NCBI GenBank assembly: GCA_003660975.1
Contig: QMVG01000008.1
Coordinates: 1 to 36,099, forward strand
DNA from: Microcaldota archaeon
GTDB taxonomy: Archaea > B1Sed10-29 > B47-G15
DNA length: 36,099 bases
Direction: 5' to 3'
The position numbers and the translations under genes are program-made. Position 1 is the stretch's first letter. Each line of letters begins with the position of its first letter. The notes under the pieces are model-generated. The model was not told the origin of the DNA. It worked only from the letters and a program-made list of their open reading frames with translations, and searched no databases. Of this stretch, positions 16,483-21,947 are shown in pieces.

Positions 16483-17235
16483 ATGAAGAGGGTTAAGACA
16501 GGCATATATGGTCTTGATGAGCTGATAGAAGGCGGATTTCCAGCAGGCAGGACAGTGCTTGTCTCTGGCGGCTGCGGGACAGGCAAAACAATATTCTCTA
16601 TGCAATTCGCATACAGGGGAGCAGTTGAATTTGATGAGCCTGCTGTTTTTGTTACTTTGGATGAAAGACCAAAAATGATAAGAGAGGATATGCTTAGGTT
16701 TGGCTGGGATTTAAAGAAAGCAGAGCAGCAGGGAAAGTTTGCAATTTTGGATGCAAGTGCTGCCAAGGTTGGCTTTCCATCTGATGAGAAATATACTCTA
16801 CCGCAAAGCGGGATAGATATTGATAAGCTTTTAATGAAGATTATGGACATAAGTCAGCAAATGGGGGCAAAGAGGGTTGTGATTGACTCCATAGCTGGCC
16901 TGGGCTTGCAGGCAGAAAATGTAAATGAGATAAGAAAAACAATTTTAAAGCTGAATTACCTTCTTTTAAAAACCAATTACACAACTGTTATAACAAGCGA
17001 AATTGCAGAGCAGTCTTTTGAGAGTGGCCCAATGATGTTCTCTAAATACGGTGTTGAAGAATATGTAGCAGACGGCCTTATAGTATTGCACTATTTGGGC
17101 ATAGGCACACAGTCCAATAGGCAACTGTATATAAGGAAGATGAGGGGAACTAAGCACTTTGAGGATTTAATACCTATGGAAATTACTCCAAAAGGCATTG
17201 TAGTGAAAAAGCCAGAAGACGAGTATAAAATTTAA
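16483..17235 (+). CDS. KaiC-like single-domain RecA-superfamily ATPase (first copy)
   Basis: The 250-residue protein is a single KaiC domain: start TGIYGLDELIEGGFP, Walker A GGCGTGKT (29-36), FVTLDERP at the place of the KaiC catalytic carboxylate pair (here D-E), Walker B RVVIDS, and a C-terminal RKMRGTKHFEDLIPMEI segment. Such archaeal proteins are signalling ATPases (KaiC/GvpD/ArlH group); targets are mostly unknown. It shares a nearly identical C-terminal region with the second copy at 18097-18879. Its stop overlaps that of the convergent Lrp gene by 4 nt. Confidence 0.9.
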   Translation: MKRVKTGIYGLDELIEGGFPAGRTVLVSGGCGTGKTIFSMQFAYRGAVEFDEPAVFVTLDERPKMIREDMLRFGWDLKKAEQQGKFAILDASAAKVGFPSDEKYTLPQSGIDIDKLLMKIMDISQQMGAKRVVIDSIAGLGLQAENVNEIRKTILKLNYLLLKTNYTTVITSEIAEQSFESGPMMFSKYGVEEYVADGLIVLHYLGIGTQSNRQLYIRKMRGTKHFEDLIPMEITPKGIVVKKPEDEYKI

Positions 17236-17690
17236 AACGTTCTCTTGTATGTGGAAGATGACAGCATATCGTAAATCTCGTAGATTTCAGGGAATTCCTC
17301 GTAAAGGCTGTTTATAAAGTCGCTCTGCTCTTCCATGTTTTTTGTCTTAACGTTGATTAGAAACCTCCACTCTCCTGTTAATGAGTATATCTCCTTTATT
17401 TCATTTTTTCTTTCAAGCTTCTTTATTAAATCCCTGATTTTGCTTCCAGCCTTTACCTTTAGCAATATATAACTGTTTACGTAAGGGCCTGCTTTTTCAT
17501 AGTCTATCACAGGCATGAAAGCTTTTATTATGCCTTCCTCTTTCATTCTCTTTATTCTCGAGTGCACTGTTGCAGTTGGTTTGCCTATAAGCTTGGCTAT
17601 TAACGTGGCATTTGCTGATATTGCGTCTTTATTTCTCATAGCTTCAAGTATCTCCTGATCCAAGGCATCTAGGTCTGTCATGTATTTCAT
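17232..17690 (-). CDS. Lrp/AsnC-family transcriptional regulator
   Basis: The 152-residue protein has an N-terminal winged HTH (LDQEILEAMRN ... IGKPTATVHSRIKRMKEEGIIK) and a C-terminal RAM/ligand-binding domain (VNSYILLKVKAGS, IYSLTGEWRFLINVKTKN). Lrp proteins bind amino acids or other small ligands and often control their own gene. TTTATATA at 17705-17712 (minus) would start transcription near 17682, so ATG 17681 (three codons in) is a possible leaderless start instead of 17690. A 7-bp inverted repeat lies upstream at 17756-17775. Confidence 0.9.
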   Translation of the reverse strand: MKYMTDLDALDQEILEAMRNKDAISANATLIAKLIGKPTATVHSRIKRMKEEGIIKAFMPVIDYEKAGPYVNSYILLKVKAGSKIRDLIKKLERKNEIKEIYSLTGEWRFLINVKTKNMEEQSDFINSLYEEFPEIYEIYDMLSSSTYKRTF

Positions 17691-17897: not shown

Positions 17898-17905
17898 TTT
17901 ATATA
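17898..17905 (+). promoter_or_regulatory. TATA box for the structured repeat copy 1
   Basis: TTTATATA with an A-rich upstream flank. Initiation would fall near 17928, 15 nt before the structured repeat that starts at 17943. Confidence 0.45.
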
Positions 17906-17942: not shown

Positions 17943-18042
17943 CTGGGTGAGCCTTCTCCTCCTCGCAGCGAATTCGGCGAGGAGGAGCCGAATTTTCTCT
18001 CATCGTTCCACCATATCACCTCCCCCAATGAGAAGGCTCACC
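17943..18042 (+). ncRNA. Candidate structured small RNA containing repeat copy 1
   Basis: No convincing protein is encoded here. GGTGAGCCTT (17946-17955) can pair with AAGGCTCACC (18033-18042), closing a domain that contains an 11-bp hairpin: CTCCTCCTCGC (17956-17966) with GCGAGGAGGAG (17977-17987) and a 10-nt loop. A competing stem AATTCGGC/GCCGAATT (17971-17978 with 17987-17994) cannot form together with it. A T-rich run follows the closing stem. The first 67 nt recur at 21881-21947 with one mismatch. The strand is inferred from the TATA box at 17898-17905. I could not match it to a known RNA family; a short mobile repeat is the alternative. Confidence 0.5.
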
Positions 18043-18096
18043 TTTCTTTACCTTTTATAGTTATTATTTTAAACCATCTATTCCTTATTTTCTACA

Positions 18097-18879
18097 ATGG
18101 CAATTGAAAGGGAACCTACAGGCATACCTGGCTTTGATGAGTTAATAGAAGGTGGTTTTCCGAGATACTCAATAGTGCTCGTCAGCGGGAGCCCTGGCAC
18201 TGGGAAATCCCTTTTTTCGCAGCATTTTGTATATACGGGAGCGACAAAATTTGAGCAAAAAGCCTTGTATGTCTCTTTTGAGCAAAGGATACCTGAAATA
18301 TATGAACAGGCAAAAAGGTTTGGCATGGACTTTGACCTTTTAGAAAAGCAGGGCAAGGTAAGGTTCGTCTTTTATGACATAAGCAACAGGGTGCTGGGAG
18401 AAGGAGAAACATACGTTGAGCTAATAAAGAGGGAGGCAAGAGAGTTCAATGCTAAAAGGATAGTGATAGATTCTTTAGTTCCTTTAGCCAACTTCCCCGT
18501 TTCTGTTGATGAGCTCGCTTCATACGGATTTATAAACGAAATAGACAAGTTAATGCCCATAGGCATAAGCGAGGAACTGCTTGTGAGAATGCAGGTACAT
18601 AAACTGATGAGCACATTAAAGGACCTAAGAGCCACCTCAATAGTTGTATCTGAAATACCAAAAGAGTCAAACTGGCTTTCAAGGGACAGGGTTAGTGAGT
18701 TTATGGCAGACGGAGTTATAGTATTGCACTATTTGGGCATAGGCACCACCTCCAACAGGTCTTTAGTCATAGAGAAAATGAGAGGCACGAAACACGCTGA
18801 AGACGTCATCCCAATGGAAATAGGAAAGAATGGCATTGAAGTTAAAAACCCCAGGGACGAATTCAAAGTGCCCAAATAA
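18097..18879 (+). CDS. KaiC-like single-domain RecA-superfamily ATPase (second copy)
   Basis: The 260-residue protein has the same plan as the first copy: GIPGFDELIEGGFP, Walker A GSPGTGKS, Walker B RIVIDS and EKMRGTKHAEDVIPMEI near the end, plus an insert (about residues 135-165) before the last helices. At the catalytic carboxylate position it reads SFEQR, so the second acidic residue of the KaiC pair is Gln. TTTTAAA near 18068-18074 would give a start close to ATG 18097. It lies directly after the structured repeat and faces the V4R gene. Confidence 0.9.
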   Translation: MAIEREPTGIPGFDELIEGGFPRYSIVLVSGSPGTGKSLFSQHFVYTGATKFEQKALYVSFEQRIPEIYEQAKRFGMDFDLLEKQGKVRFVFYDISNRVLGEGETYVELIKREAREFNAKRIVIDSLVPLANFPVSVDELASYGFINEIDKLMPIGISEELLVRMQVHKLMSTLKDLRATSIVVSEIPKESNWLSRDRVSEFMADGVIVLHYLGIGTTSNRSLVIEKMRGTKHAEDVIPMEIGKNGIEVKNPRDEFKVPK

Positions 18880-21812: not shown

Positions 21813-21880
21813 TTGTCTAAAAAGATTTGATAAAAAAACTTTTTAAATTAATTGAGACAAAAGAGAAAATAGCAGATCTG

Positions 21881-21947
21881 CTGGGTGAGCCTTCTCCTCC
21901 TCGCAGCGAATTCGGCGAGGAGGAGCCGAATTTTCTCTTATCGTTCC
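21881..21947 (+). repeat. Structured repeat copy 2 (candidate small RNA)
   Basis: These 67 nt equal 17943-18009 except for T at 21939 (C at 18001), and the flanks differ completely. The 11-bp hairpin and the competing AATTCGGC stem are preserved, but the outer closing stem of copy 1 is not. TTTTTAAA at 21840-21847 lies 37 nt upstream on the plus strand (centre to element), similar to copy 1. It lies between the TrmB-like gene and the end of the nuclease-like gene. Confidence 0.6.

What the first reader, a model, noticed from the sequence alone, without database searches (positions are those of the whole stretch)
17943..18042. Structured element with two alternative folds, repeated 3.9 kb away
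A 67-nt sequence (17943-18009) recurs at 21881-21947 with one mismatch while the flanks are unrelated. Each copy has an 11-bp hairpin and a competing 8-bp stem that exclude each other, and each follows a plus-strand TATA box by a similar distance (about 42 and 37 nt from the box centre). Copy 1 also has a 10-bp closing stem and a T-rich end. This looks like a small RNA family or a small mobile repeat, placed next to regulator and KaiC genes.
Basis: partly seen in the sequence, partly recalled or inferred. Interest (0 to 1): 0.75.

Follow-up and report, generated by a model that had tools for sequence, protein, structure and literature searches.

The report
Altered copies of new archaeal RNA
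The repeated 67-base element is a pair of rearranged copies of a previously undescribed small-RNA gene family with a two-way folding switch, found in most members of one small archaeal phylum and often next to DNA-binding regulator and chromosome-maintenance genes; what it does is not yet known.

Summary
In detail: 66/67 nt repeated 3,938 nt apart, an 11-bp hairpin with a competing 8-bp stem in each copy, a TATA box about 40 nt upstream, and a closing stem in copy 1 (13 bp, not 10). Only these two long copies exist in the genome.

The first 17 nt (CTGGGTGAGCCTTCTCC) are the core and 3' strand of an RNA gene family absent from Rfam. The own genome holds two canonical members. A covariance model finds 25 in 15 of 19 genomes of the phylum; of 375 other archaea only one matches, and a shared neighbouring gene supports it as a distant relative.

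Members have a covarying stem P1 (all 6 modelled pairs change on both sides; 0 of 20,000 permutations), a competing 5' hairpin (0 of 20,000), a hairpin GGCU-GGGUG-AGCC and mostly a TATA box. They sit beside Lrp- or XRE-type regulators, a PRC-barrel gene pair, or smc.

The window copies fail the covariance model: they keep core and 3' strand, but the purine strand lies downstream instead of upstream. I read them as rearranged paralogues that keep an either/or fold. A mobile element is not supported. The mechanism (switchable trans-acting RNA) is inferred.

The parts
17898..17905 (+). TATA box (TTTATATA) of copy 1, centre about 41 nt before the repeat
   Evidence: sequence; TATA-like sites are enriched upstream of the whole family
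17943..18009 (+). copy 1 of the 67-nt repeat
17943..17959 (+). family core plus start of the pyrimidine 3' strand, CTGGGTGAGCCTTCTCC, identical in the canonical member at G000:C5:60607-60623
17956..17966 (+). pyrimidine arm of the 11-bp hairpin (Z strand)
   Evidence: sequence; fold
17977..17987 (+). purine arm of the 11-bp hairpin (X strand, here downstream of the core)
   Evidence: sequence; fold
17971..17994 (+). competing 8-bp stem AATTCGGC (17971-17978) with GCCGAATT (17987-17994), which puts the X strand in its loop
   Evidence: sequence
17946..18042 (+). 13-bp closing stem of copy 1: 17946-17958 with 18030-18042
18017..18023 (+). CACCTCC box; the same box stands 45-59 nt after the core in five canonical members
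18043..18058 (+). T-rich stretch after copy 1, possible archaeal terminator
   Evidence: sequence only
21842..21849 (+). TATA-like box of copy 2, centre about 36 nt before the repeat
   Evidence: sequence
21881..21947 (+). copy 2 of the 67-nt repeat (stems at 21894-21904/21915-21925 and 21909-21916/21925-21932); no closing arm
17232..17690 (-). Lrp/AsnC-family regulator beside copy 1
   Evidence: PF01037, PF13412
18097..18879 (+). KaiC-family ATPase downstream of copy 1; relatives' KaiC loci lack the element upstream
   Evidence: PF06745
20751..21590 (-). TrmB-family regulator beside copy 2 (divergent)
   Evidence: PF01978

Best explanation
The two window elements are rearranged paralogues of an undescribed archaeal small-RNA gene family. 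Shown: canonical members have, on the plus strand, usually a TATA box, then a purine strand X, a pre-core strand Y, a core hairpin GGCU-GGGUG-AGCC, and a pyrimidine strand Z. X can pair with Y (5' hairpin) or with Z (stem P1), and both pairings are supported across relatives by cognate complementarity. In the window copies the core and Z come first and X follows, so X:Z is a simple 11-bp hairpin; a second stem (AATTCGGC/GCCGAATT) competes with it, so an either/or fold is kept in a new strand order. Inferred: each copy is transcribed from its own promoter as a roughly 70-130-nt RNA; the early local hairpin refolds into the more stable X:Z stem as Z emerges; the state decides whether Z (C/U-rich, complementary to purine-rich ribosome-binding sites) and the GGGUG loop are free to bind a partner. 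Most likely it is a trans-acting riboregulator. I put the switch-and-bind mechanism at about 0.3, and descent of the window copies from the family at about 0.8.
For: 17-nt identity of the window copies with a canonical own-genome member. Covariance model R2: 25 matches in 15 of 19 genomes of the phylum, none in 375 other archaea apart from G078 at E 0.002. P1 cognate-pair test 0/20,000, z -4.7; X:Y 0/20,000, z -4.4; distant-flank controls flat. All 6 P1 pairs change on both sides; covariation score 0/500 shuffles. TATA-like sites 60-120 nt before the core at 7-8 times background. P1 state more stable than the 5' hairpin in 22 of 25. No Rfam family matches. G078 shares the downstream regulator gene of G005 at 44% identity and a CCTCCGAA box 47 nt after the core.
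Against: The window copies score only about 8-11.5 bits with the models (E 0.55 or worse) and their core hairpin is weakened (GAC or TGC instead of GGC). Sequence support for a true strand permutation is weak: 30/2000 shuffles do as well and nhmmer finds nothing. No expression data, no known binding partner, and the trans-acting mechanism is untested. Copy 2 is not unusually stable. They could be non-functional debris.
Confidence: 0.6

Rival explanations
1. The window copies are dead or dying fragments: part of a canonical member (core plus Z) was duplicated, joined to a chance inverted repeat, and then locally copied once more.
For: They fail the family model; the upstream X strand and the intact GGC of the core hairpin are missing; no relative has the element at the kaiC locus.
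Against: 66/67 identity between copies, a TATA box at nearly the same distance in each, an intact 11-bp stem plus a competing stem, and in copy 1 a perfect 13-bp closing stem. High identity could simply reflect a recent event.
Confidence: 0.25
2. A small mobile element (MITE-like) with 13-bp terminal inverted repeats; copy 2 is a 3'-truncated insertion.
For: 13-bp perfect terminal repeats in copy 1, unrelated flanks, a near-identical second copy.
Against: Two long copies only in the genome, no target duplication seen by eye, no match in phages, plasmids or viral contigs. The 'terminal repeat' sequence is the core of a family whose members lie in conserved neighbourhoods and have covarying stems.
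Confidence: 0.05
3. The family acts in cis, as leader, attenuator or promoter-proximal control element of the gene downstream (regulators, smc).
For: Members stand 100-540 nt upstream of Lrp-like, XRE-like or smc genes in many genomes; neighbour regulator shared between G005 and G078.
Against: Downstream genes often have their own TATA box between the RNA and the start codon (sequence); in G014 and G015 an opposite-strand gene lies between the RNAs and smc; in own3 the usual regulator is replaced by a peptidase gene, and in G016 and G017 one member is convergent with an smc-like gene.
Confidence: 0.15
4. Copy 1 is an antisense regulator of the canonical RNA: its 3' arm GAGAAGGCTCACC is perfectly complementary (13 bp) to the core and Z strand of copy 2 and of the member on C5.
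For: Exact complementarity.
Against: The same arm closes copy 1 on itself, which is favoured within one molecule; copy 2 lacks the arm; no relative shows such an arm.
Confidence: 0.1
5. The elements act as DNA, as sites for chromosome organisation or origin proteins, since members lie near smc, a topoisomerase I gene and PRC-barrel genes.
For: Neighbourhoods.
Against: Stems of arbitrary sequence kept by compensatory change, and upstream TATA boxes, point to RNA.
Confidence: 0.05

Closest known systems
Rfam 15 structured RNA families (RNase P, SRP, tRNA, H/ACA and C/D guide RNAs, riboswitches)
   Same: Structured, with a closing stem, a conserved hairpin and compensatory changes, as expected of any structured RNA
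   Different: No family reaches its gathering score at any member tested or at the window copies; only chance-level matches
Archaeal trans-acting small RNAs (general class, from memory)
   Same: Predicted 70-130 nt, intergenic, own TATA box, a few paralogues per genome
   Different: Unusually strong sequence core and a conserved two-way fold; conserved over a whole phylum
MITE-like elements
   Same: Copy 1 has perfect 13-bp inverted ends and a near-identical partner
   Different: No multiplication, no target duplication, conserved neighbourhoods of the family
Permuted RNA genes (permuted tRNA and SRP RNA genes of archaea, from memory)
   Same: The window copies have the core and 3' strand ahead of the purine strand that is 5' in canonical members
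   Different: No processing motif was shown and sequence support for a true permutation is weak

Membership tests
the new RNA family defined here (covariance models R1/R2) | conserved core GGCYGGGTGRGCC | tested here: inconclusive
   Window copies match 12 of 13 core positions; GGC is GAC in copy 1 and TGC in copy 2, which weakens the core hairpin
the new RNA family defined here (covariance models R1/R2) | score with the covariance model | tested here: not met
   9.1 bits with R1 (core only, E 0.55); at most 11.5 bits (E 1.4) with R2
the new RNA family defined here (covariance models R1/R2) | purine strand upstream of the core pairing with the 3' strand (P1) | tested here: not met
   The purine strand lies downstream in both window copies
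the new RNA family defined here (covariance models R1/R2) | two mutually exclusive stems around the purine strand | tested here: met
   17956-17966/17977-17987 against 17971-17978/17987-17994; in relatives X:Z and X:Y are each supported
the new RNA family defined here (covariance models R1/R2) | TATA box upstream on the same strand | tested here: met
   17898-17905 and 21842-21849; enrichment in the family
the new RNA family defined here (covariance models R1/R2) | common descent with a canonical member | tested here: met
   17 identical nucleotides with the C5 member; the C1 member differs at two of them. About 1e-4 exact 17-mer matches are expected by chance in this genome
Rfam families | match above the gathering score | tested here: not met
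MITE or insertion sequence | terminal inverted repeats | tested here: met
   13 bp in copy 1 only
MITE or insertion sequence | target-site duplication and multiple copies | tested here: not met
   Two long copies in the assembly; no direct repeats at the ends by eye
permuted RNA gene | significant similarity of the downstream half to the upstream half of canonical members | tested here: inconclusive
   30/2000 shuffles as good; nhmmer finds nothing
trans-acting small RNA | discrete transcript | not testable with these tools
   no transcript data

The most novel reading that the evidence does not exclude
An ancient archaeal riboregulator with a built-in either/or fold, spanning at least two phyla and linked to Lrp-type regulators and smc, in which the own genome carries working copies with permuted strand order that preserve the switch. 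The either/or pairing, not the order of strands, would then be the selected property.
Probability: 0.3. Interest if true: 0.85.

Novelty: new variant of a known kind. Interest (0 to 1): 0.62.

Why it matters
Structured RNA families of small uncultivated archaea are poorly catalogued. This one is present in most sampled genomes of a phylum with a probable relative in another, has compensatory changes in its main stem and support for a competing one, and lies beside transcription regulators and chromosome genes, so a role in global regulation or the cell cycle can be tested. The window copies would be a natural experiment on which features of the fold are kept when strand order changes.

Tried and rejected
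Rfam search of the window, both canonical own members and ten relatives' loci: only tRNAs and chance-level matches. Exact 21-mer and 100-131-nt searches for the window copies in genomes, viral contigs, phages, plasmids and the phylum: nothing beyond the own genome. KaiC loci in relatives: no element. Regions upstream of smc and of the XRE regulator in the own genome: no element seen. A 12/13 match to the closing arm after a kae1 gene (C1:131016) was set aside as a terminator hairpin at chance level. The genome-contig scan of the 19-mer found one archaeal contig, of the same length as G006:C6; the other 24 hits are bacterial and taken as chance. G273's pattern match looks like coding sequence. 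Pairing of the core with 16S rRNA (12 of 13 positions with GGCUCACCAAGCC) was considered; the mismatch stands at a G that is fixed in all 25 members, so I did not adopt it. Strand permutation by sequence: not significant. A third stem around the CACCTCC box: not significant in A-type members. RNAalifold on a plain MAFFT alignment found only the core hairpin because P1 is misaligned; the alignment-free test and the covariance alignment replaced it. R2's training alignment A3 includes one likely chance match (L154 2010-2042), and the weak member G007a was not recovered by the models. Three literature searches found nothing relevant.

Full report
1. Observation. The repeat is real: 17943-18009 and 21881-21947 agree at 66 of 67 positions, with unrelated flanks. 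A whole-assembly search finds no other long copy. Each copy has an 11-bp hairpin and an 8-bp stem that share bases, and a TATA box about 41 and 36 nt upstream.

2. From the repeat to a family. Long queries found nothing outside the genome. A search of the own genome with the 13-nt closing arm found a further exact site on contig C5, identical to the window copies over 17 nt, CTGGGTGAGCCTTCTCC. Stretches of the genome then gave a fourth, on C1, which shares 31 exact nucleotides with C5, CACACAAATGACCCCTTTGGCTGGGTGAGCC. Using the C1 member as query recovered short matches to the same core in relatives. Reading their flanks showed that each core sits between complementary strands of different sequence. 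A 13-nt core pattern has 31 matches in the 19 genomes against 4 for the reversed control.

3. The canonical RNA. Order on the plus strand: usually a TATA box, purine strand X, variable loop ending in a pre-core strand Y, core GGCYGGGTGRGCC (a 4-bp hairpin with a GGGUG loop; most of the variation seen keeps it paired), pyrimidine strand Z. I tested the pairing without an alignment: for 25 members, duplex energy of each 5' flank with its own 3' flank against permuted partners. No permutation of 20,000 does as well (z -4.7); more distant flanks show nothing. The same test supports a local hairpin in which the upstream strand pairs with Y just before the core (0/20,000, z -4.4). With one member per family and type the counts are 11 and 40 of 20,000. 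X cannot pair fully with both, so the two stems compete; the X:Z state is the more stable in 22 of 25, and X:Y can form first during transcription (inference).

4. Covariance model. R1, built from ten members, recovered members outside its training set, for example L151 3e-7, the own C1 member 3e-6, L150 9e-6, and a second member in G011. On the resulting alignment all six P1 pairs change on both sides in some sequence, and no shuffle of 500 reaches the covariation score (the alignment was fitted to the model, so the alignment-free test is the primary evidence). R2 finds 25 members in 15 of 19 genomes of the phylum. Among 375 archaea outside it there is one match, G078, at E 0.0022, which alone is at the chance level for that many genomes. 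G078 is nevertheless probably a relative: it lies just after a topoisomerase I gene, has a long P1, has CCTCCGAA 47 nt after the core like other members, and its downstream regulator is 44% identical to the one downstream of the G005 member.

5. Transcription. TATA-like octamers are 7-8 times more frequent than background 60-120 nt before the core. Members G005, G006a, G013a, G014a and G015a show no such box within 180 nt, and some of them directly follow a gene. CACCTCC occurs 45-59 nt after the core in own3, G007b, G016 and G017b against 0.075 expected per 40-nt window, also in G011a and in copy 1; its role is unknown.

6. Neighbourhoods (with Pfam). G008, G009, G013, G014, G015, G017a: before smc, in four of them as a tandem pair about 275-330 nt apart. 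G001, G002, G003, G006, G007b: near a PRC-barrel gene pair (or one such gene) and an XRE-type regulator; own3 keeps the PRC-barrel pair. G005, G006a, own4, G078: beside Lrp-type regulators. This looks like vertical inheritance with conserved synteny, not mobility.

7. The window copies. They keep core and Z and a TATA box, and they share descent with the C5 type (17 identical nucleotides). They lack X upstream, have a weakened core hairpin, and fail R1 and R2. A purine strand downstream of Z forms the 11-bp hairpin, and AATTCGGC/GCCGAATT competes with it. So an either/or fold is present in another strand order. A true permutation of a B-type member (the smc-proximal second copy) is suggested by resemblance (sixth of 14,424 segments) but not established (30/2000 shuffles; nhmmer none). 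Under the membership rule I do not file them as canonical members; I call them rearranged paralogues.

8. Mechanism. Shown: family, structure, competing stems, likely promoters, neighbourhoods. Inferred: discrete transcripts, co-transcriptional refolding, exposure of Z or the GGGUG loop to a partner, trans action. I think a trans-acting riboregulator most likely (about 0.3 for the specific switch-and-bind scheme).

9. Limits. The assembly is 90% complete and holds contigs of deviating GC; the phylum is represented by 19 genomes, most incomplete; no expression data exist here; core-based searching fixed the core, so only the stems, not the core, are tested independently.

Noticed in passing
window 16483-17235 and 18097-18879: Two KaiC-family genes flank the Lrp gene, with a 74-nt stretch 78% identical between them (17048-17121 and 18686-18759).
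   Followed up: no
G000 contigs C6, C11, C12, C17, C20-C22, C27-C29 (loci L090-L092, L096, L097, L102, L105-L107, L111-L113): GC of about 0.46-0.58 against about 0.40 for the other large contigs; probably foreign contigs in the metagenome bin.
   Followed up: no
L158 (G015), smc gene from 2033: The smc reading frame appears to hold an intein-like insert right after the P-loop (GPNGSGK/CLRGDSQL).
   Followed up: no
L251 (G078) 37-1491: The topoisomerase I gene upstream of the distant family member carries a LAGLIDADG homing-endonuclease or intein stretch (Pfam).
   Followed up: partly
L121 1007-1168, L133 1899-2055, L135 1239-1380: tRNA matches spanning 142-162 nt, i.e. tRNA genes with long introns, near family members.
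   Followed up: no
L030 1501-1533 (G000:C1:131016): A hairpin GGGTGAGCC..GGCTCACGCCC with a 12/13 match to the closing arm lies after a kae1 gene and near an orc1/cdc6-like gene; taken as a terminator.
   Followed up: partly
L011 and L012 (G001, G002), KaiC relatives: The match to the window's second KaiC protein contains one in-frame TAA in both genomes.
   Followed up: no
L089, reverse strand near position 618 of that strand: 16S rRNA contains GGCUCACCAAGCC-like sequence, complementary to the family core at 12 of 13 positions; the mismatch falls on an invariant core G.
   Followed up: partly
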